Assembly (NCBI RefSeq): GCF_048128805.1
Contig: NC_136019.1
Coordinates: 17,691,381 to 17,755,380, forward strand
Reading direction: 5' to 3'
Length of the DNA: 64,000 nt
From: Centroberyx gerrardi
Taxonomy: Eukaryota > Chordata > Actinopteri > Beryciformes > Berycidae
A program made the position numbers and the translations under genes. The notes under the pieces were generated by a model. The model was not told the origin of the DNA, made no database searches, and was given only the letters and a program-made list of their open reading frames with translations. Shown piece by piece: positions 4,006-64,000 of this stretch. Every line of letters begins with the position of its first letter. The first letter of the stretch is position 1.

Positions 4006-5848
4006 ATGATGAGCTATACCTTGGTAACAGCTTTACTTCTCTGCAACCTGAGTAAGTACTGGTATTATATTATTCTCAACACTAACTGCATCACTAACTT
4101 CTCATCAATACAGTAACCCACCAGAACTGAAACTTAATAACTTATCAATCTAGGATTAAATCACTTGTTTTCTCTGGTGTTTGTTTCAGGCTGGATCCCT
4201 GTCTCGGTTTCTGAGTCTCAGACTGTGGAGGTCCAGCCTGGTGGAGAAGTCACGTTGATGTGCACCAACATTTCCAGTTATCGCACTTTCTCAGCCTGGT
4301 TCAGACTGGTCAACAGATCCAAGCCCTGCTGCATCTCCTCTCTGTATGGCTCTGATGGCAACCCTTGGTTCTGTGATGGTTTTCAAAATGGCAAATTTGA
4401 AATGAGATCCAACATCTCCACTCTCTTTCTCAAAATCAAGCAAGTGGGTTTATCTGACTTTGGACTTTATTTCTGTGGGTTTTACATAGATGGCCACACA
4501 GTCATTGTCAATGCAACATTTTTAAAGGTTCAAGGTAAGATTATTTTAAAGTCTTGTCTGTATTTTGGTTCCCATTTGTGACTATAATGTCTTTCTCATG
4601 ATACTTATATCTGAAATGTATCCTCACAGTAACCTCAAAACAACATAAAGACAAACATATGTGGTCTATTTAAATATTGTCAAAATAGGATTATATGTTA
4701 TACTGTTTAAATAAAATCAAGATGAAGTCGTATCGTCATGTTTTTTAAAGGCAATGGCGAATTTGATGACAAAGTGGATGGCATGTCTGAAAGTAAGATT
4801 CTCCCTCTCTCTCATAAAGATTTCTTTCATTGTGCAGATTGATATTTTGTCAATTGTTTGAATGTAAAACAGCTTATCTGTACTCAGTTTTGTCCATTTT
4901 AGCATTAGCCAGGTCTAAAACCACTAGAGGAGAGTTCAGAGAGTCTAATTTAATAATCTTTAATTCTTGTAGAAAAGCCTGATGGAATAACAAGTCTGGC
5001 TTCTGTGATCCTGGGTGGTGTGACTGTTTTCCTCATTATGGTCATCGTCGGTCTGGTTCTCAAAATCAGGCAACTTCAGACAGGTACTTTCTGAGAGATA
5101 TCTTGTTTTTTTTGTGATCAAGTTTTTATTTCATTTCTTTACTGGGTGTAACGATAATAAATCATATACACATACCCACATGTATCACATACATATGTGT
5201 CCATAGATTACATCTCCATAACACATTGTTGCTGACAGTGCTGTTCAAGAGAAAACAAAAAGATAAATTATTTTACCGTTACCACCCACATTCCCCATCT
5301 TTCCCCTCTCCTGCCCTCCCCACCCTAACCTACTACTCTGTCCCACCTTTCCATTCCTTCCCCTCCCCCATGCTGGCTTCTGAGAGCTATCTTTTATATT
5401 TTGTTGCACATTCTCTTTAAGTTGTGTCAATATGATGGACAAATCCAAAACTTCCTGCTGCACCAAATGCATTGAAAACAGCAATGTTTGTGGACAATGA
5501 TAATTAACTGACTGGACTGATTTTCCCTGTTATTTAGCTGCTGAAGAAGAACTGCAGCCACAAAGAAGCGAGGTGAATCCAATATTGAGATTTGTTTTTA
5601 AATGTTCTGTGGTTTAAAAGGTGCTGGAATCACTTCAAGTCATGATTATGCTACTAAAAATGTTTGTTTCTCTGACAAACTCAGCTATGTGAGATGTGTG
5701 TGATTGTGTGTACTCTTATTTACAGAATCTGGATTCAGATGAGCTGAAGTACGCAGCGCTGAGTTTCCATCCAAAACCAAAGAGAAGCAGGAGGCCCGCA
5801 TCAGAGAAAGAGGTGGAACCTAATGTTGTGTGTGCTGCCACCAGATAG
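4006..5848 (+). CDS. Receptor gene 1: single-V-domain transmembrane receptor with ITIM
   Basis: Six exons: 4006-4051, 4190-4534, 4751-4792, 4973-5083, 5538-5572, 5726-5848; 702 nt, 233 aa, all GT/AG. Residues 1-16 ([16 protein letters not shown]) are a signal peptide; 17-130 a V-type Ig domain with Cys40, Trp52, Cys111 and an extra Cys62-Cys63 pair plus Cys77; 131-145 an acidic stalk without cysteine; about 153-174 the membrane helix; the tail holds the ITIM LKYAAL (Tyr202). There is no J-like motif after the domain, unlike classic NITRs. Odd points: the usual C-terminal tyrosine is a cysteine (NVVCAATR), and DSG before the second core Cys is DFG. Intron 4 holds a retroposed fragment and the 3' UTR an L2-like tail; AATAAA lies at 6106-6111. 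Function as an inhibitory immune receptor is inferred from architecture. Confidence 0.88.
5105..5377 (-). mobile_element. Retroposed 3'-UTR-like fragment in intron 4 of gene 1
   Basis: On the minus strand the insert ends in AATAAA, about 15 nt and then an A-run. It is flanked by a 16-bp near-perfect direct duplication (TTCTGAGAGNTATCTT at 5089-5104 and 5378-5393). This is the hallmark of LINE-driven insertion of an mRNA 3' end. Sister genes have the uninterrupted site. The source transcript is not recognised; a 3' piece of a LINE is the alternative. Confidence 0.65.
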
Positions 5849-9754: not shown

Positions 9755-11136
9755 CAAGGGCGTAGAATTGGGTAGGGACGTTAGGGACGTGTCCCTACCA
9801 ATATCAAGCGACTCTGAAATGTCCCTAGCAATTATTTTGATTGACAATAAACGTTGTTTTGTCCGTCAGTGTCTAGTCAATGTTAACAGATCGCGTTCTC
9901 TACTACGAGTCCCGCTGCATTGGTGTAGTGCATTGGTGTCCCGTGTCGGCATAGCAACGGACGCTGTAACGGAACTTTAGTATAACAGCTGTTTTAGAAT
10001 GTTATTGCGTCACCCGGATAAAAATTGGCGTGACACCGCCTCCCTAACCCCCCAAAAAAATCGCTGATTGGCTTTGCCATTTCTTGCTAACGTATGAAAT
10101 GTTGTGGGCAAGAAGAGCCAAAGCTCCGCCTACCGGCGAGCATGCGAGTGAAGACTCCATCCTATTTTATATTAGTAACAGTTGTGTTTAGCCATTAAAG
10201 TTAGTTTATTTAAGTACCGTGTCGCGTGCGTCTGTGTCGAGTGACGACCGTAAGTAGCCTACATGTCACAAGTGAGATTGAACAATGCTGCTGTGTGCCA
10301 CACTGGACAACACTGATGTAAAACAAATATGCCAACAGTTCATTTCTGTTAATGACAGGCGTAGGCATGTGTTTGGCTCCTTCAAATAAGAGCAAGGCAG
10401 TGGACACTCAGCTGTTTGTATGTAAGGTTTGGATATAGTTTACAATATCTTATTATTATTATTATTATTATTATTTTAAATGTAAATACAGATTGTTGGT
10501 TTGAATAGGCAACAGTACTACAGTACCTGCCTTAAAACAAAATGTGCTCTTCAAAGTCCCATTCAGCTGGCAAATTTGAGTAAAGGATTCATTAATGTGC
10601 TACACCCCTGTGTCTGTGTGTCTGTTAATGAGTGTATTGGCTACCATAACTATCTAGATCAGTGGTTCTCAACGTGGGGTCCGGGGACCACCAGCGGTCC
10701 TTGAGGGGGTTCCAGGGGGTCCCCAGCAAATTGATGAATTGTTAAACTTCAGCATTATTTAATTTACAAATAGTTAACACAATTACAGAATGTAGAAGAA
10801 TGACTGTTTTGATCTTAGTTTCACTGTTATCTCTCTACCTACAATACAGACAGTCATGGGATTCTGGATCAAAATCATATCTAACAATAAAAGTATTCTC
10901 AGATTTGGGGCTGAGAGACAAAATCTCATCAAATGGGGGTCCATGGCTCTAATGTGGACTAAACTAGGGGTCCTCGATATGAAAAAGGTTGAGAATCACT
11001 GATCTAGATGACATGAAATGGCGGTCAGAAGTCTATCATAAATGCAAAACGCCTCAGCTTCCAGTGGGGGTTACATCCCCTCCGGACCTCCCCCATTTGT
11101 GTCCCTACCAATGTCAAAATCAAACCTACGCCCTTG
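9755..11136. mobile_element. Non-autonomous hAT element, 1,382 bp, in the L2 LINE
   Basis: TIRs CAAGGGCGTAG and CTACGCCCTTG are flanked by the 8-bp duplication ACCTGAGT (9747-9754 and 11137-11144). The uninterrupted LINE site is seen at about 23,978. No transposase is seen. A second hAT (10660-11001) and an ATT microsatellite (about 10,450-10,475) lie inside. Confidence 0.9.
10660..11001. mobile_element. hAT MITE, 342 bp, nested in the 1,382-bp hAT
   Basis: TIRs CAGTGGTTCTCAA and TTGAGAATCACTG are flanked by the perfect 8-bp duplication ATCTAGAT (10652-10659 and 11002-11009). These ends are typical of a widespread vertebrate hAT MITE group. Confidence 0.93.
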
Positions 11137-11839
11137 ACCTGAGTGCAGCCTTTGATACAGTGGATCACAACATATTAATCCAAAGACTGGAAAGCTGGGT
11201 CGGCCTATCTGGCCCAGTTCTAATAATTTCTCTGTCTCCTTCTGAAACTTTAAGTCTGAAAACAGTGTGTAGACATAGTGTGTGGAGTCCCACAAGGGTC
11301 AGTTCTTGGACCATTGTTATTCAATAGCTCCTTTCACACATGCAGCCTGTTAAATTTAACGGCACTGGGGCCATGTGTGAATAGGAGCCGATGTCCAAAT
11401 GCCAGCAAATCAGTTCCACCAATTTCACTGTTAAAGACGTTGTAACATTTCTGGTAAAGTTCCGTATTGACCGCATGTGTGAACAATGCCATAACATTAC
11501 TGGCTCAAGCACACACAACGTTAGGACGCTCTGATGTAGGACGCTCTGTTGTTGAACTGTGTGAGCCGATCACAAAGTTCTCAAGGAGGTGAAGAGTTTA
11601 TTCCGCGCTGGCTAAGACGTGTAGGAGGGAAATACAAACCACCATACAATGAGCTGTAGCTTTTTGACATGGTATTGGCAAAAATGTCGACTTGGACAGA
11701 TATGCAAATAAGAAAGCTCTTCAGCGTCCGGGTGGACGAAGAGATTAGCCTGCAGCTTCACCTGCCATGTTTTCAAACTGCAGTGACTCCAGCACAAAGG
11801 TTAAACATAGTTTCTGGGAAATGACAACAGAGGAATTTA

Positions 11840-18154: not shown

Positions 18155-18732
18155 TCTGCCACCAACTGTCACCTCACTCCATCGGCCACCCCAAGTATCA
18201 GCACCCTGCTGAGAGGCAGGACCACTGCCATTGCACTCAGACTCACTTGTCCTTCAAGCAACCTAGGGTCCCAAAGACTAACCGCCGCCCCCTAAAGACT
18301 ATAAAGGCTGTGATGCCATTCTGATGCCAGCCTCAAGCCTTCACATGAATCAAAATGACCATGGTGAACGACCTGGAAAAAGCTCGGGCCCTAAACCGGG
18401 AGTTATCCATCCTCTTGGTAAAAGTAGCTATTGAACCTGTGGACCCCCTGATACAGCCTGGGGTGATCTATTCCACTTATTTTCTCGTCAAAAAGAAAGA
18501 TGGTGGTTTTCACCCAGTCCTGAAATTAAAGGGGCTCAGTGTGTTCTTAAAAACTATGTCGTTCTATATGTTAAGCACAGCAGACATTTTTCAGGAAGTT
18601 GCCCGAGAAGATTGGGTCACATCTATCGACTTGAAGGAGGCCTATTTTCATGTTCCTATTGCACCTCACTACAAAGAGTTTCTTTGTTTTGCCTTGAAAA
18701 AAAGAAAGAAAAATATTGCCTAAAACTGTTGC
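18155..18732 (+). mobile_element. DIRS-type relic, reverse transcriptase part (unit 4)
   Basis: A translated stretch from 18355 shows the DIRS-type RT order: VKKKDGGFHPVL, then TSIDLKEAYFHVPIAPHYKE. It is a partial, broken fossil, nearly identical to 42458-42826 in unit 8. Confidence 0.75.
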
Positions 18733-23059: not shown

Positions 23060-23970
23060 TAATATGATTGATGTGTGACAGAGGAGGGGCCAGTATCTCT
23101 GTCCAAATTCCCTTATAGAGAGAGTTAGATGGGCGTCTGCAGCAGGGGAGGAGCAAGTTAGGTAGACATCACTTCTTTGACAGGAAGAGACAGCACAGTG
23201 TGGCAAGAGAACAACTGAGGTGAAAACCATGAGGCCTGTCATGTCAAAGCTTTGTAACAGGTCAAAGGAAGCAGTGAAAACTGACGTACTTGCTTCTGTA
23301 ATGTAAACAAAATATGGTCAGCCTCTACATTTGTGTTGAAGTTCTGACATCAGTGTGTGAAAGGTATTCTATAGCATTTGAATATGTTACTGAATATTTT
23401 AACTTCTGATATATCCTTATGTGTCTTTGGTCTATATTGGTAAGTCAAATGTGTGAATAAAAAATACAAAGATACAGCAGCATTTCAGTTTTGTAATCTG
23501 AGTGTGTTTGGATGCACATGTGGACATGCAACAAGTCTTTATGTCCCTCTCTCATTTCCACTGCAGTGACAAACAGCACTGACTATCTGAGCCAGCAAGG
23601 TCTCAACCACAGGAAGACTGGTCAACACACACAATTGGCCTCTCTGTTTCCACAGAACAACAATGATACTACTTGATCAAAGACAATTTCTTTGCTTTTA
23701 AAATGTGCATATCATGTTTTAGTTGTATTTGTCGAGATGCAATCAGTTAGCATCATGTCAACTATGTATCCATCTCTTTTCAAACAACGTTGTTCCATTC
23801 ATCTCATCTCAGACCAAACCAAACACTTCACACAGGCTCACTTCACTCTCTTGTCTAAACATTATGCATCAGCTTCTGCTTTCAGATTTGCAGCAAACAT
23901 CCCTGACGCACCCCAACACTTCTACAACCAGATACGAAAGGCTTACCTTGTGAAAAAGAGATGTCATACA
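23060..23970. other. Conserved downstream block (after gene 4)
   Basis: Same block as after the other genes, with the conserved ETS/RUNX-like core and the splice-donor consensus near 23,440. It joins the L2 LINE at 23,972 at the same base as after gene 2. Confidence 0.45.
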
Positions 23971-24193
23971 CTGTTGGACCTGAGTGCAGCTTTTGATACA
24001 GTGGATCACAACATATTAATCCAAAGACTGGAAAGCTGGGTCGGCCTATCTGGCCCAGTTCTAAATTGGTTTGCCTCTTATCTGAGCGGTCATAATTTCT
24101 CTGTCTCCTTCTGAAACTTTAAGTCTGAAAACAGTGTGTAGACATAGTGTGTGGCGTCCCACAAGGGTCAGTTCTTGGACTATTGTTATTCAA

Positions 24194-35740: not shown

Positions 35741-36205
35741 AAGAAAGAAGAACAAGCACAGATCCTGTACAGACCTATGGCGCATGTTCAATTCTATCCA
35801 CTGAAGCACTACAACACGGTTAAATTACCTAATTCCACTAACATTACTTAAATACCACAAGGTAATGTTAAAGTCACCTACTGTTAAAGTTTGTAAAGCA
35901 GCGAAGATGAGGTACGGTCTGCAAATCCCCGTTACTGACTGTGGAATGCTAAATTTCACTTTTGTTTTCACAGCAGGAGACTCTTTGGATTGAGTTCAGT
36001 GCTGCTGGTCTGCTGTCTGTACATCTCCAAGAGAGAGACATGACGTGATGCGCACATCAGACGCATTAGAGATCGATTTACATCCATTTCTATACAGTGA
36101 CCAACTTTTGATTTTGTGCTTCTGTATGGGAAACACTGCATCTCACAGTCAAAAACACCCTCTAGAGGCCATCTGATGAAGCATATCATCTCACTAAGCA
36201 TTACC
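35741..36205. other. Intergenic stretch, no feature recognised
   Basis: I see no gene or known repeat here. It leads into the tetranucleotide array. Confidence 0.4.
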
Positions 36206-37335
36206 TGACTGACTGAGTGACTGAGTGAGTGAGTGAGTGAGTGAGTGAGTGAGTGAGTGAGTGAGTGAGTGAGTGAGTGAGTGAGTGACTGAATGACTGA
36301 CTGACTGACTAACTGAGTGAGTGAGTGAGTGAGTGACTGACTGACTGACTGACTGACTGACTGACTGAGTGAGTGACTGAATGACTGACTGACTAACTGA
36401 GTGAGTGAGTGAGTGACTGACTGACTGACTGACTGACTGACTGACTAACTGAGTGAGTGAGTGAGTGACTGACTGACTGACTGACTGACTGACTGACTGA
36501 CTAACTGAGTGAGTGACTGAATGACTGACTGACTAACTGAGTGAGTGAGTGACTGACTGACTGACTGACTGACTGACTGACTGACTGACTAACTGAGTGA
36601 GTGAGTGACTGAATGACTGACTGACTGACTGACTGACTGACTAACTGAGTGAGTGAGTGAGTGACTGAATGACTGACTGACTGACTAACTGAGTGAGTGA
36701 GTGAGTGAGTGACTGACTGACTGACTGACTAACTGAGTGAGTGAGTGACTGACTGACTGACTGACTAACTGAGTGAGTGAGTGAGTGACTGAATGACTGA
36801 CTGACTGACTAACTGAGTGAGTGAGTGACTGACTGACTGACTGACTGACTGACTGACTAACTGAGTGAGTGAGTGACTGACTGACTGACTGACTGACTGA
36901 CTAACTGAGTGAGTGAGTGACTGAATGACTGACTGACTGACTAACTGAGTGAGTGAGTGAGTGACTGACTGACTGACTGACTGACTGACTGACTGACTGA
37001 CTAACTGAGTGAGTGAGTGACTGACTGACTGACTGACTGAGTGACTGAGTGACTGAATGACTGACTGACTGACTAACTGAGTGAGTGAGTGACTGACTGA
37101 CTGACTGACTGACTGACTGACTGACTGACTGACTAACTGAGTGAGTGAGTGACTGACTGACTGACTGACTGACTAACTGAGTGAGTGAGTGACTGAATGA
37201 CTGACTGACTGACTAACTGAGTGAGTGAGTGACTGAATGACTGACTGACTGACTAACTGAGTGAGTGAGTGAGTGACTGACTGACTGACTGACTGACTGA
37301 CTGACTAACTGAGTGACTGAGTGACTCACTGACTG
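36206..37335. repeat. Tetranucleotide satellite of GACT and GAGT units, 1.13 kb
   Basis: Nearly every 4-mer is GACT or GAGT, with rare GAAT and AACT variants. They form a higher-order pattern: runs of GACT, then AACT, then runs of GAGT, repeated every 40-60 bp. This points to slippage plus unequal exchange. There is no spacer/repeat structure and no coding sense. The stretch after 37,931 still shows a few GACT units, so the array was longer before a transposon entered. Confidence 0.95.
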
Positions 37336-37931
37336 ACGTTTACATGGACTGCAATAATCCGACTATTGACCTTATTCTAAATAAGACAATATTTCGATTA
37401 AGGTGTTTACATGAGTTGCTTATAGAATATTCCATTCATATTCCCGTTTACATAATACAGAGCATAGTCCAATTAATGACTGAAGACGCACGCCCACATT
37501 ACGTCCCTACGTCCTACGTCTGAGTTCCCCTCCGGAATTTAACCTGAAACCCTTTCTGTCATGTTGCTACTGTGGTAGGGACTTCTTTTTACCGGTGGCA
37601 GTCATCTTTTCTTCTGTAAACAAGTTTGCAACACTCGCTGGAAGCTAAAGCATGCGTCAAGCAGTTGGATTGCCGTACGTGTCGCAAAATGCTGCGAAAA
37701 CTCCAATAGGACGTCATAGTACGATTAAGGTGTATACATGTCTACTATGCACTTCAATAATGCGACTAAAATCGGAATACTCCACTTAATTCTTAATTCG
37801 ACTATTGCTTACTCCGACTATGACCTTATTCGGGCTAAGGTAATCAGAAAATGCTGTTTACATGGCAGTTTCTTTTTCAGAGTATTGTCTTAATTAGGTT
37901 AATATCGGAATATTGCAGTCCATGTAAACGT
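37336..37931. mobile_element. TIR MITE of about 596 bp inserted in the satellite
   Basis: Inverted ends ACGTTTACATGGACTGCAAT and its complement at the right, with about 26 of 28 positions matching. Both flanks are tetranucleotide satellite (ctcactgactg), so the target duplication cannot be measured safely. No ORF. Superfamily uncertain. Confidence 0.75.
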
Positions 37932-41399: not shown

Positions 41400-42835
41400 T
41401 TTTCATGGGATATGGGTCTATTTTCTGGTTGAGATGTGATTCCACTATTCCATCATTCACATGGCTCCGGCTCACCTTCAACTGGACTCAAAGCAGCCAG
41501 ATCCAGGCCCTGTAAGGGACGTGCTCCAGCTCACTCTACCTTTACTGTCCTTCCCTTCAATGAGTACCTGAGTGCATGCATACTGGAGCCACTACAGCCC
41601 TATCCCATCATATGAGTATTGGCCGCACACTGGCAGTGGTGCAAGATGCAGCAAAGTTTCGGCCTTGACCACATGCCCACTGTCTAACCTACTAATGCCT
41701 CCCTCAGTCTCTCCTAAAAAGGCCCTGAGGTTGGAAGCCAGGTGGTCTCGACCCCAAAGTTGAGTTACTAATGACCTCATCTCTAAGGTTATGCCATAGT
41801 GGCAGGCATGGGCCATATCAGCAACTTCCTCTCTCACCTCATGCTTGCTCTCTCAGCCTCCCTACACTAGTCTGATGTCAGCAATGCTTCATTGCAGGCT
41901 TTTGCCTCATGTCAAGAGAGCTTGGACAGTTGATGTCTTCTCTTGTTCAGACTCACCGATAAGTTTGGCTGGCGAGTCGCCCTTGCCAGGAACCATGATA
42001 GGAGAACACTTCAGGGCCTCACTGTGGAAACAGTCGAGTTGTTCCGCCTGGCCACTGAGCAGGCGGTGCTCAAGCATACTGTTCAGGCAAACCACACTAG
42101 ACAGCACTTTTCAGGCCTTCGCAGGGACCTTGCTGCCATCGGTTCCCCTCAGTCCCCCTCTCCGCTTCCAACTGCCTCTTCACTCCATCGGCCACCCCAA
42201 GTATCAGCACTATGCTGAGAGGCAGGACCATTGCCATTGCACTCAGACTCACTTGTCCTTCAAGCAACCTAGGGTCCCAAAGACTAACCGCCGCCCCCTA
42301 AAGCCTATAAAGGCTGTGATGCCAGGAACTGAAGGTCTAGGTCCGGCCGTTGGTCACTTTTCCCAGCAGCAGCTCAGTTACTGGGCAGCTCACACCTCAG
42401 ACCCTGGGTTACAAGCTGCAATTCTGATGCCAGCCTCAAGCCTTCACTTGAATCAAAATGACCATGGTGAACAACCTGGAAAAAGCTCGGGCCCTAAACC
42501 AGGAGTTATCCATCCTCTTGGTAAAAGTAGCTATTGAACCTGTGGACCCCCTGATACAGCCTGGGGTGATCTATTCCACTTATTTTCTCGTCAAAAAGAA
42601 AGACGGTGGTTTTCACCCAGTCCTGAATTTAAAGGGGCTCAGTGTGTTCTTAAAAACTATGTCGTTCTACATGTTAAGCACAGCAGACATTTTTCAGGAA
42701 GTTGCCCGAGAAGATTGGGTCACATCTATCGACTTGAAGGAGGCCTATTTTCATGTTCCTATTGCACCTCACTACAAAGAGTTTCTTTGTTTTGCCTTGA
42801 AAAAAAGAAAGAAAAATATTGCCTAAAACTGTTGC
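41400..42835 (+). mobile_element. DIRS-type relic, longest copy (unit 8)
   Basis: About 1.4 kb covering a degraded part upstream of RT and the start of RT (from 42458; VKKKDGGFHPVLNLKGL, SIDLKEAYFHVPIAPH). It is a broken fossil with several breaks. It ends in the same A-rich junction as unit 4. Confidence 0.7.
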
Positions 42836-59709: not shown

Positions 59710-60084
59710 TTTTTTCTGAATGTTGTCTCAAGTAAAAAAAAATCTTATTTATAGAGTTGACAAGCTATTTTGAGGCCTTCATTTCCCATTCAGTAGTAGT
59801 TTATGTGTCTCTATCTGTTAAACACATGGATATTGTTGACCCTCTCAACAAACAGCACAGTGCCTCAGCTCCTAACCTTATAGGGAGCAGGTTTTTCCAG
59901 AATTCCTTGAGATGAGGCAACATAGGCCGCATTTTTTCTTGGGCTCGGGTTACTGTTACACTGCCAACCCAGACACAAAACACACGCCTCTTTTCTCGGC
60001 ATCAAATTTATTGAAACCGAAGCTCTTTCGCACAGCGTTACTACATTTCTTATTAAAGGACCTGCTGCGAGGAAATGTTAGTCA
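59710..60084. other. Intergenic stretch after TIFA, nothing recognised
   Basis: No gene or known repeat is recognised. The last 8 bp (GTTAGTCA, 60077-60084) flank the left hAT element. Confidence 0.5.
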
Positions 60085-60377
60085 CAAGGGCGGATATTTC
60101 ATTTCACTGTTGGGGGGGACAATAAACAGAAAAATTTCTCAAGAGCAATTCCTGAAGGGGACACCAAAGGTGCCGCCAAAAGTACTGTTGTATTAAATGT
60201 ATATAGAGGTCCATTATGAAACATTTCCATAAGCACGTCATTCCTTTCTTATGAAGATTTTATCAAATTGCCTTTGATATTACTGGGGTCTTTCTACTTG
60301 GCGTTTCGGTGCACTGAAAAATGATCGGATGTCTGTTTTTCTTTTCTCTGCCATTTTAACTGACTGGCTGACAAATA

Positions 60378-60410
<33 letters not shown>

Positions 60411-61454
60411 CATGCAGGTTATTTACAGTAGTAGGTGAGATGCAACACCCATTAACTGAACTAAAGCTAATATATGCCTAATTAGATTTAGTTTTCCCGA
60501 AAAAGCAGATCTCTAATGTTTTGCTGTCAATGTGTAAAAGTCCAGAACGCTATGAAGCCTGCCAGAAACTTACTTATATTTTAACATAATGTTTGTTGTA
60601 ATTATGTCTTTTTTATTAAGTCTCACAAATGAACAAAATTATGAACAAAATAACATAGTGGCAGCCATTTTACATGCAGTAAGAAAAAAATAATATACTT
60701 AGAACCTAATTACATAGGGTAAGTTAATCTTAAATATTATATTATAGAAATATTACTGTTACCATCTACAAAAGATAAAGTATTTTGGTATGAAATCCCG
60801 CATTTTAATTTAACCAACTATCCTGTATCATAAATACATGTCTGGCATTTGTAACAAACCAAACCGCTTGAAAATCGGTCGAAAATTCAGTGAGTTATGA
60901 TGATTTTAATTGTGGACAGACCTCCTGCCTCCATACACACACATGCATTAGGAGACGCGGCTCCGTACCAACACGCTGACGCACAAGATTCAACCGCGAG
61001 GTAACGGAACAAAATGTAGTCTGGTTACAATTGTGAATGTGTTTTATTCTATTGAGTGGTAGAAGTAAAGAAAAATGTCTGACACATCCTTTGTTTTAAG
61101 TTAACCTTTGCAAAGTAGCTTCTTACTGGAGGTCTGCCACCACTGACACACTTCCAGAGATCCTCCACACACACTCGTACCGAGGGCTAATGTGTGTGTG
61201 TGGGGGTTCGGGGAGGCAGGTAGGCAGTGGACCGAACCACTGTGAGGCATATGAGGGGGGGACTCAATCTTTCGAAACTTAAAAACGCATTGTTTTGCGT
61301 CTATAATTAGCACAAGTGCTTTCAATGCATATTATTATATTATTTAAAATTATATAGTTATGTTTACAATGATATATTGAGGGGGACAACTCTCTGTTAG
61401 TCCCAGGAAGGGGGGGTCCGGACCCCCCTGTCCCCCCCGTGATTTCCGCCCCTG
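60085..61454 (-). mobile_element. hAT element, left copy (1,370 bp), inverted relative to the right copy
   Basis: Ends CAAGGGCGGAT and TCCGCCCCTG. On its minus strand it keeps the first 24 codons of a transposase-like ORF (MAEKRKTDIRSFF, near 60,356), a start typical of ZMYM/hAT-type transposases, so it is an internal deletion derivative. An AC microsatellite (60379-60409) lies inside. The two flanking 8-mers do not match each other (GTTAGTCA left, CGCCTACA right). They match those of the right copy instead. Confidence 0.85.
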
Positions 61455-62336
61455 CGCCTACAGTAGATGATGACGACCACATTCCCAACATTTTACAACT
61501 GCTGCACTTCTTGTCAACAACTCCATTGACACTATGTGCTCTTCTTCATGTGAGGAGATGCAGATACCCAAGGATGAAGCTGGGATGTATCTGTAACAGA
61601 GTTGTTACCGTGTATAATTACACTAAACCTGTTATTTTAGTTTGTATACCTGACGGTTTTCTTCTACCTTCATTGACAATTCTGCTGTCATATAGGCTAC
61701 AGTATGTACAGTAAGAGCCCCACCCCCTCCTGCACCCCTCCTTCTCCTTGCCCCCATAAACTTCCTGTCCCCCTTCACCTCTCCCCTTTTGCTGTGTTCC
61801 CCTATGGGAGAGGTGGGTGTCATTTTCCCTCCCGTATTATATCACAATCCATCTTATTGTTTCTTATCATTCATATTTCTATTTTTGTTATCCCTTCCGT
61901 CATAAAGTCTGGATGCACCTGTTAGTTTATAGATTGTCATGTATTGGCCCTTATATAAAGTTATATTTAACAACGAAATCTGCTAGCTAACAACTATATG
62001 AGTTAAGCTAACATTCCCCCTTTTTCCTTAATTTCATTTGTGCAGGAGCTGGAATGCTGTATTAAATTGGAGGATTTGTTTTGTTTTTCTTATTTCATGT
62101 CAGGTATGTTTACTGTGTTTTATTTTAAACCTTAAATCCTTCCACACAACGCAGAATTTCACCGGTTACATATCTATAAATGTCATTTTTAGAGGGAATT
62201 GCCAGTACCAACTGTAAATTCAATACACTGAAAAAGAAACATTGCACTCAAACACAAGTTTAGGCTGATGCTGTTGTTCTGTGGCTTATTGGGAAAGTGG
62301 CTGAATGACATCATGGTGATAGAGGGCCTGACTAAC
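61455..62336. other. Segment of 882 bp between the two hAT copies, inferred to be inverted
   Basis: No gene is recognised. 61,465-61,560 reads DDDDHIPNILQLLHFLSTTPLT, weakly like the C-terminal dimerisation part of a hAT transposase. Its outer 8-mers are CGCCTACA and TGACTAAC, the complements of the right and left outer flanks. Confidence 0.6.
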
Positions 62337-63375
62337 CAGGGGCGGAAATCACGGGGGGGACAGGGGGGTCCGGACCCCCCCTTCCTGGGACTAACAGAGA
62401 GTTGTCCCCCTCAATATATCATTGTAAACATAACTATATAATTTTAAATAATATAATAATATGCATTGAAAGCACTTAATTATAGACGCAAAACAATGCG
62501 TTTTTAAGTTTCGAAAGATTGAGTCCCCCCCTCATATGCCTCACAGTGGTTCGGTCCACTGCCTACCTGCCTCCCCGAACCCCCCCACACACACATTAGA
62601 CCTCGGTACGAGTGTCTGTGGAGGATCTCTGGAAGTGTGTCAGTGGTGGCAGACCTCCAGTAAGAAGCTACTTTGCAAAGGTTAACTTAAAACAAAGGAT
62701 GTGTCAGACATTTTTCTTTACTTCTACCACTCAATAGAATAAAACACATTCACAATTGTAATCAGACTACATTTTGCTCCGTTACCTCGCGGTTGAATCT
62801 CGTGCGTCAGCGTGTTGGTACGGAGCCGCGTCTCCTAATGCATGTGTGTGTATGGAGGCAGGAGGTCTGTCCACAATTAAAATCATCATAACTCACTGAA
62901 TTTTCGACCGATTTTCAAGCGGTTTGGTTTGTTACAAATGCCAGACATGTATTTATGATACAGGATAGTTGGTTAAATTAAAATGCGGGATTTCATACCA
63001 AAATACTTTATCTTTTGTAGATGGTAACAGTAATATTTCTATAATATAATATTTAAGATTAACTTACCCTATGTAATTAGGTTCTAAGTATATTATTTTT
63101 TTCTTACTGCATGTAAAATGGCTGCTACTATGTTATTTTGTTCATAATTTTGTTCATTTGTGAGACTTAATAAAAAAGACATAATTACAACAAACATTAT
63201 GTTAAAATATAAGTAAGTTTCTGGCAGGCTTCATAGCGTTCTGGACTTTTACACACTGACAGCAAAACATTAGAGATCTGCTTTTTCGGGAAAACTAAAT
63301 CTAATTAGGCATATATTAGCTTTAGTTCAGTTAATGGGTGTTGCATCTCACCTACTACTGTAAATAACCTGCATG

Positions 63376-63428
<53 letters not shown>

Positions 63429-63721
63429 TATTTGTCAGCCAGTCAGTTAAAATGGCAGAGAAAAGAAAAACAGACATCCGATCATTTTTCAGTGCACCGA
63501 AACGCCAAGTAGAAAGACCCCAGTAATATCAAAGGCAATTTGATAAAATCTTCATAAGAAAGGAATGAAGTGCTTATGGAAATGTTTCATAATGGACCTC
63601 TATATACATTTAATACAACAGTACTTTTGGCGGCACCTTTGGTGTCCCCTTCAGGAATTGCTCTTGAGAAATTTTTCTGTTTATTGTCCCCCCCAACAGT
63701 GAAATGAAATATCCGCCCTTG
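62337..63721 (+). mobile_element. hAT element, right copy (1,385 bp)
   Basis: Same element as 60085-61454 in opposite orientation, highly similar over its whole length; most of the size difference is the TG microsatellite (63374-63427). The outer flank TGTAGGCG is at 63722-63729 and the inner flank TGACTAAC at 62329-62336. Confidence 0.85.
63452..63526 (+). pseudogene. Remnant of the N-terminus of a hAT transposase in the right copy
   Basis: The open frame MAEKRKTDIRSFFSAPKR runs 24 codons to a TAA. The basic start followed by a SFF motif is usual for transposases of the ZMYM/DUF4371-containing hAT group. The rest of the transposase is missing. Confidence 0.55.
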
Positions 63722-63729
63722 TGTAGGCG

Positions 63730-64000
63730 GGAACTGGATCAGTCCAGCCAACATATTTCCTTCATAACCACTGATCCAGACATCTTGGGGAGTGTAACCA
63801 CCACCCGAGGAAGGAGTGTGCTTAAAGGAAACCTCCTTTGAGCTGAAATAACCCCAATGAGCAAAGCAAACCCTCAAAATGGGGAAGAGAGAAAGTGGCA
63901 CTTCTCAGTCTTTGCCAAATACGGAAAATATAAATGAAAGTGTTGCTTTGAGCATTTTACGGTATGCTGCAACTTCATTACTGATAATGCTTTATATAAC
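63730..64000. other. Right end of the window, nothing recognised
   Basis: Open frames cross this stretch from the transposon and have no recognisable domain. Confidence 0.4.

What the first reader, a model, noticed from the sequence alone, without database searches (positions are those of the whole stretch)
60077..63729. Inversion between two hAT copies, shown by swapped target-site duplications
The left element is flanked by GTTAGTCA and CGCCTACA, the right one by TGACTAAC and TGTAGGCG. Each outer 8-mer is the reverse complement of the inner 8-mer of the other element. Turning 61455-62336 around restores two perfect 8-bp TSDs. So two independent insertions were followed by recombination between them that flipped the 882-bp segment.
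Basis: seen in the sequence. Interest (0 to 1): 0.85.

Follow-up and report, generated by a model that had tools for sequence, protein, structure and literature searches.

The report
Tiny inversion between two hAT transposons
Two copies of a jumping gene face each other in an animal genome, and their exchanged insertion scars show that the short piece of DNA between them has been turned around, most likely by recombination between the copies, a known kind of event seen here in a small and complete form.

Summary
Left copy: GTTAGTCA 60077-60084, element 60085-61454, CGCCTACA 61455-61462. Right copy: TGACTAAC 62329-62336, element 62337-63721, TGTAGGCG 63722-63729. Each outer 8-mer is the reverse complement of the other copy's inner 8-mer (chance about 2-4e-10). 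The family is young: of 38 other copies fetched from the same genome, 34 have perfect 8-bp duplications and 2 more differ at one base.

The spacer 61455-62336 is therefore inverted relative to the insertion state, if the assembly is right. The layout alone does not give the mechanism: recombination between two insertions and one aberrant sister-chromatid transposition simulate to the same sequence. Other family members help. Of 9 substitutions between the copies, 7 have both alleles elsewhere among 37 relatives; identical copies at birth would rarely give that (P about 2e-7). This favours two separately derived copies. Yet they share a base found nowhere else in the genome in its 18-base context and no difference over the last 253 compared columns, as gene conversion would leave. 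Recombination 0.66, aberrant transposition plus later conversion 0.20, assembly flip 0.07. A new example of a known kind.

The parts
60077..60084 (+). outer 8-bp duplication 'a' (GTTAGTCA) of the left copy
   Evidence: Reverse complement equals 62329-62336
60085..61454 (+). left hAT-type element, 1370 bases; starts CAAGGGCGGATATTTC, ends GATTTCCGCCCCTG
   Evidence: Inverted-repeat arms, alignment with the right copy, terminal motif scan, 38 relatives in the genome
60379..60409 (+). (AC)n microsatellite in the left copy, 15.5 units
61455..61462 (+). inner 8-bp duplication b' (CGCCTACA) next to the left copy
   Evidence: Reverse complement equals 63722-63729
61455..62336 (-). 882-base spacer including both inner 8-mers; inverted relative to the insertion state of the two elements
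   Evidence: Turning it restores two perfect 8-bp duplications
62329..62336 (+). inner 8-bp duplication a' (TGACTAAC) next to the right copy
62337..63721 (-). right hAT-type element in reverse orientation, 1385 bases
63377..63427 (+). (TG)n microsatellite in the right copy, 25.5 units
63452..63526 (+). possible transposase remnant in the right copy, MAEKRKTDIRSFFSAPKRQVERPQ then stop
   Evidence: End of the open frame 63368-63526; no Pfam match; likeness to hAT-type N-termini is recalled only
63722..63729 (+). outer 8-bp duplication b (TGTAGGCG) of the right copy

Best explanation
Two copies of one young, non-autonomous hAT family (Tip100-like ends) inserted in opposite orientation 882 bases apart, one at GTTAGTCA and one at TGTAGGCG. 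They probably came from different source copies. A crossover inside the inverted arms (non-allelic homologous recombination) turned the spacer around and exchanged the inner duplications; gene conversion at that time or later made parts of the arms alike. Shown: layout, exchanged duplications, old family variants among the differences, patchwork likeness. Inferred: the order of events, the crossover itself, conversion, and a correct assembly. Such arms could flip again, so both orientations may segregate.
For: Exchanged 8-mers on both sides, against perfect duplications at 34 of 38 other copies. A simulated crossover gives the observed layout. Of 9 substitutions, 7 have both alleles among 37 other copies; a new mutation would do so with probability about 0.065, so 7 of 9 has P 1.5e-7 (2.6e-4 if that rate is tripled). 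For 4 of 9 both alleles are in 3 or more others, P 2.7e-6. In alignment columns 961-1205 the copies differ at 6 sites, like unrelated pairs (mean 5.3), but at 0 sites in 1206-1468 (1.2% of 666 other pairs so alike) and 1 in 626-960 (4.1%): a patchwork as conversion leaves. PMC8225341 (passages) gives inverted, non-identical duplications as the mark of such recombination against reversed-ends transposition; PMC2775673 (passages) reports it for Galileo.
Against: The layout is also that of one aberrant transposition. The copies share a base seen in 0 of 37 others and, in its 18-base context, only at these two places in the genome, and a short deletion shared only with L020 among 38 others: this looks like common origin unless conversion spread it. 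They are each other's nearest copies on one mask (0.68%; next 0.91% for left, 1.06% for right), though on another mask the left copy is as close to L046 (9 differences). Partner switching as shown for Galileo was not demonstrated: only 4 sites are informative and the relatives show no clean pattern.
Confidence: 0.66

Rival explanations
1. Hybrid-element insertion: after replication the transposase joined the 5' end of one element with the 3' end of its sister-chromatid copy and inserted the pair 882 bases away, in one step duplicating the element inverted, turning the spacer and leaving exchanged duplications. A stretch of one copy was later replaced by conversion from a third family member.
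For: Simulation gives the observed layout with donor at either site. Explains nearness, inverted orientation, the genome-unique shared base and the rare shared deletion. PMC2775673 says the outcome is strikingly similar to ectopic recombination. Ac/Ds elements, also hAT, do sister-chromatid transposition (PMC8225341).
Against: 7 of 9 differences are old family variants, not new mutations (P 1.5e-7 for identical copies at birth), so a conversion tract must be added; in columns 961-1205 no sampled copy is nearer to the right copy than 4 differences. Two of the three differences outside that tract also have both alleles elsewhere. PMC7642927 (passage) knows of no wild Drosophila inversion made this way.
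Confidence: 0.2
2. Assembly flip: both elements are real with normal duplications and the assembler put the 882-base spacer in backwards.
For: Arms of 1370-1385 bases at 99.3% identity would defeat short reads; an error would give exactly this pattern. No second allele is held: the left flank is found once in the genome.
Against: The genome held is chromosome-scale, 778,876,752 bases in 278 contigs, the window has no N and crosses a 1.13-kb CTGA array and about nine similar tandem units: this suggests, but does not prove, long reads that would span 3.6 kb.
Confidence: 0.07
3. Reversed-ends transposition between two separate copies on one chromatid, or chance likeness of the 8-mers.
For: Maize Ac/fAc pairs do make inversions with elements at both breakpoints (PMC8225341).
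Against: In that model the fragment between the elements is lost, so I infer that only the new junctions should match; here both 8-mer pairs match. Chance is about 2-4e-10.
Confidence: 0.02

Closest known systems
Galileo inversion 2z3 of Drosophila buzzatii (PMC2775673, passages read)
   Same: Two copies of a DNA transposon in opposite orientation at the ends of an inverted segment, with exchanged target-site duplications
   Different: P-superfamily element with 7-bp duplications; a cytologically mapped polymorphic inversion; chimeric copies and uninverted chromosomes shown there. Here hAT type, 8 bp, 882 bases, no clean chimerism and no uninverted chromosome seen
Ac/Ds alternative transposition in maize (PMC8225341, passages read)
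   Same: hAT superfamily; inversions with an element at each end and 8-bp duplications at the junctions; sister-chromatid transposition described
   Different: The six inversions there come from reversed ends of two elements with loss of the fragment between them; here both duplication pairs match
Tip100 / Tip group of hAT transposons (PMC12511174 and PMC3942097, passages read)
   Same: Published terminal repeat CAGGGGCGGAG and 8-bp duplications; one end here is CAGGGGCGGAAAT, the other CAAGGGCGGATAT
   Different: No transposase in these copies, so placement in the Tip group rests on about 10 terminal bases

Membership tests
hAT superfamily of DNA transposons | 8-bp target-site duplications | tested here: met
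   34 of 38 other family copies perfect, 2 more with one mismatch; here exchanged. 8 bp as hAT signature: PMC12511174, PMC3942097
hAT superfamily of DNA transposons | short terminal inverted repeats (10-25 bp) | tested here: met
   CAAGGGCGGA and CAGGGGCGGA, 9 of 10 alike, in both copies; range from PMC3942097
hAT superfamily of DNA transposons | hAT transposase with dimerisation domain | tested here: not met
   All 26 frames of 35 or more residues overlapping the right copy (one cut to its last 26 residues) were scanned against Pfam up to E 10. No transposase family; the matches, best E 0.0013 to TMEM127 in a frame with a (VC)n run, are all below Pfam's cut-offs. Expected of a non-autonomous copy
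Tip (Tip100) group | terminal repeat CAGGGGCGGAG | tested here: inconclusive
   10 of 11 bases match at one end, 9 of 11 at the other (against PMC12511174)
Tip (Tip100) group | transposase groups with Tip100 in a tree | not tested
   No transposase in these copies; the autonomous partner was not sought in the genome
Transposon-mediated inversion by ectopic recombination | two homologous copies in opposite orientation flanking the inverted segment | tested here: met
Transposon-mediated inversion by ectopic recombination | exchanged target-site duplications | tested here: met
Transposon-mediated inversion by ectopic recombination | both copies chimeric relative to other family members | tested here: inconclusive
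   Patchwork likeness over four blocks, but no clean partner switch among 37 relatives
Hybrid-element insertion inversion | inverted copies with both duplication pairs matching across the inversion | tested here: met
   Simulated product equals observed layout
Hybrid-element insertion inversion | the two copies identical at birth | tested here: not met
   7 of 9 differences are old family variants, P 1.5e-7; a later conversion tract could hide identical birth
Reversed-ends transposition inversion | fragment between the elements lost, only the new junction duplications match (second half inferred) | tested here: not met
   Both pairs match; model from PMC8225341

The most novel reading that the evidence does not exclude
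A natural inversion made in one step by hybrid-element (sister-chromatid) transposition of a hAT element in an animal, probably a fish, later overlaid by conversion from a third copy. If so, some inversions read as recombination from exchanged duplications alone may be aberrant transpositions.
Probability: 0.2. Interest if true: 0.58.

Novelty: new member of a known kind. Interest (0 to 1): 0.38.

Why it matters
It is a compact, complete case of a transposon-flanked inversion: 3.65 kb, so one long read or PCR product types it in individuals and relatives, and the family is young enough (34 of 38 perfect duplications) that uninverted or one-element chromosomes may still exist. It also shows that exchanged duplications alone do not name the mechanism, and that family-wide variants can help to. 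If one-element chromosomes were found, it would be a wild example of hybrid-element insertion, which the authors of PMC7642927 say they do not know among wild Drosophila inversions.

Tried and rejected
Host-gene test of orientation: with the elements taken out, a minus-strand open frame of 144 codons crosses the right junction in the restored order against 59 in the present order. Not used as support: 209 of 5000 random window segments joined to the same flank did as well, and of the other three junction-and-strand comparisons two favour the present order (70 restored versus 100; 83 versus 136) and one is level (49 versus 49). The peptide has no Pfam match and only chance-level PDB matches (5 sequences, best E 0.72). 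The older repeat inside the spacer does not reach its ends, so it gives no orientation.

Crossover mapping: the 9 substitutions alone are not significantly clustered (P 0.52 and 0.61 on two measures; 6 of 9 past position 900, P 0.051). Dating from the 9 differences (0.33-1.1 My at assumed rates of 1e-8 to 3e-9) was dropped, since 7 of the 9 look older than the copies; each copy has 1 base seen in none of the other 38 aligned copies, against a family mean of 3.2 and median of 2, so both look young.

Alignment choices: L027 was dropped (lacks its right end), leaving 37 others plus the two copies; the (CA)n zone, gappy columns and, an indel zone (columns 586-625) were masked. The genome search scored 40 of 437 candidates, so relatives are a sample chosen by likeness to the left copy. 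Searches with the right copy as query and for the deletion allele genome-wide did not complete.

Other collections: 0 exact hits for two patterns in viral contigs and 0 for one in bacterial and archaeal genomes. Literature searches for a fish or hAT parallel showed none that I recognised from titles and abstract starts; one search returned 0. A search for the terminal motif listed 15 of 98 papers, none plainly about a hAT element by title.

Full report
Observation. The left element, 60085-61454, lies between GTTAGTCA and CGCCTACA; the right element, 62337-63721 and reversed, lies between TGACTAAC and TGTAGGCG. Each outer 8-mer is the exact reverse complement of the inner 8-mer of the other copy. 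By chance both pairs would match with probability 2.3e-10 (uniform) or 4.1e-10 (window composition). The motif CARGGGCGGA is found 4 times in 64 kb, all at the element ends, 0.05 expected.

The elements. They are 1370 and 1385 bases, with 9 substitutions over 1365 aligned bases (5 transitions, my count), a 20-base difference in a (CA)n run and a 5-base gap. One end is CAGGGGCGGAAATC, the other CAAGGGCGGATATTTC. The published Tip100 repeat is CAGGGGCGGAG, and 8-bp duplications are a hAT signature (PMC12511174 and PMC3942097, passages). The 26 frames of 35 or more residues overlapping the right copy (one of them cut to its last 26 residues) match no transposase family in Pfam, so the copies are non-autonomous. 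Filing under hAT rests on ends and duplications; the Tip group is only suggested.

The family. The window lies in a genome of 778,876,752 bases in 278 contigs. A search with the left copy gave 437 candidates, of which 40 were scored: the two copies here and 38 others. I fetched all 38. Thirty-four have perfect 8-bp duplications, two have one mismatch, one (L052) has unrelated 8-mers and one (L027) lacks its right end. So the exchange seen here is a real departure from the rule of this family.

What the exchanged duplications prove. Given a correct assembly, the spacer is inverted relative to the state in which each element sits between equal duplications. They do not say how. I simulated recombination between two inverted insertions and one aberrant transposition with ends from sister chromatids; both give the same layout, the second with either site as donor (right copy idealised as the left). 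Delprat et al. say that the second outcome is strikingly similar to the first except that the copies are identical rather than chimeric (PMC2775673, passages). Reversed-ends transposition loses the fragment between the elements (PMC8225341, passages), which does not fit two matched pairs.

Testing identical birth. Among 37 other aligned copies, 7 of the 9 left-right differences have both alleles present; only two are private, one to each copy. With the family's own spectrum of single-copy changes, a new mutation would land on such a variant with probability 0.065, so 7 of 9 has P 1.5e-7, and 2.6e-4 if that rate is tripled. Four differences have both alleles in three or more others (P 2.7e-6). 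In 36 pairs of the family with 7 to 11 differences (the left-right pair among them) the mean share of such differences is 0.66, so in this respect the two copies look like ordinary separate copies.

Signs of common origin. They are, however, closer than most: 9 differences against a mean of 19.1, with 2.25% of 666 pairs of other copies at 9 or fewer. The left copy is as close to L046 on that mask, but not on a wider one, where each is the other's nearest. They share a base absent from 37 others, whose 18-base context occurs at exactly these two places in the genome, and a short deletion shared only with L020 among the 38 others. Likeness is uneven: columns 961-1205 hold 6 differences (other pairs mean 5.3), 626-960 hold 1 (4.1% of pairs so alike), 1206-1468 hold 0 (1.2%), and 1-597 hold 2 (25%). 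I read this as two separately derived copies partly evened out by conversion between the inverted arms. The rival reading, one origin plus a tract converted from a third copy, is not excluded: no sampled copy is nearer than 4 differences to the right copy in 961-1205, while the left copy there is 1 difference from three others.

Other alleles. The left flank is found once in the genome and the spacer as a whole once, so no uninverted chromosome or empty site is held. An open frame crossing the restored right junction proved no better than 209 of 5000 random joins.

Setting. Frames in the window carry an immunoglobulin V-set domain (one tested, E 2.7e-07), an RNA-recognition motif (E 3.7e-29) and an FHA domain (E 9.9e-07). 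The last two read like RBM4 and TIFA by recall only. The contigs seen (numbers from C1 to C24) are 25 to 39 Mb long, which fits a teleost fish with 24 chromosomes; the species was not identified. The inversion lies about 0.7 kb beyond the end of the FHA frame.

Verdict. A real and clean signature, correctly spotted. It is a new example of a known kind. The listings (34 and 41 showed 10 of 52 and 10 of 156 papers; one search found none) showed no report of this locus in titles and abstract starts.

Noticed in passing
window 22-54674: A tandem array of about nine or ten similar units (20 of 58 repeat families shown), with V-set-like frames such as 4165-4581 (Pfam V-set E 2.7e-07): it seems an expanded immunoglobulin-type receptor gene cluster.
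   Followed up: partly
L052 (G000:C23:2163390-2165390): Another copy of the same hAT family with unrelated 8-mers at its two ends (GGTACTGG and ATACTACT); neither 8-mer nor its reverse complement flanks the other fetched copies. It may mark a second rearrangement.
   Followed up: partly
L022, L023, L029 (G000:C22, 24.32-24.37 Mb): Three nearly identical copies of the family within about 52 kb (2, 2 and 4 differences), one in opposite orientation, each with its own perfect duplication: looks like local hopping without inversion.
   Followed up: partly
window about 61586-62186: Most of the spacer is an older dispersed repeat, with partial copies elsewhere in the genome (56 further matches, the ten best of them at 76-94% identity).
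   Followed up: no
window 36205-37337: A 1.13-kb array of the 4-base unit CTGA, 283 copies, 89% matches.
   Followed up: no
window 63587-63904 (minus) joined to 61455 onward: A minus-strand open frame (GGYTPQDVWISGYEGNMLAGLIQFPP...) continues across the right junction only when the spacer is turned back; 209 of 5000 random joins are as long. It could be an exon broken by the right insertion.
   Followed up: partly
window 62046-62103: An exon-like stretch on the present plus strand (gtgcag before, GTATGT after), read by eye; it lies inside the older repeat.
   Followed up: no
window 18355-18723 and 42458-42826; 10989-11327 and 23692-24114: Repeated frames that read like reverse-transcriptase pieces of two retroelement kinds (the likeness is recalled, not searched).
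   Followed up: no
window 60085-63721: The two elements form a palindrome with arms of about 1.4 kb some 0.7 kb beyond the FHA (TIFA-like) frame; read-through transcripts could fold into long double-stranded RNA. Inference only.
   Followed up: no
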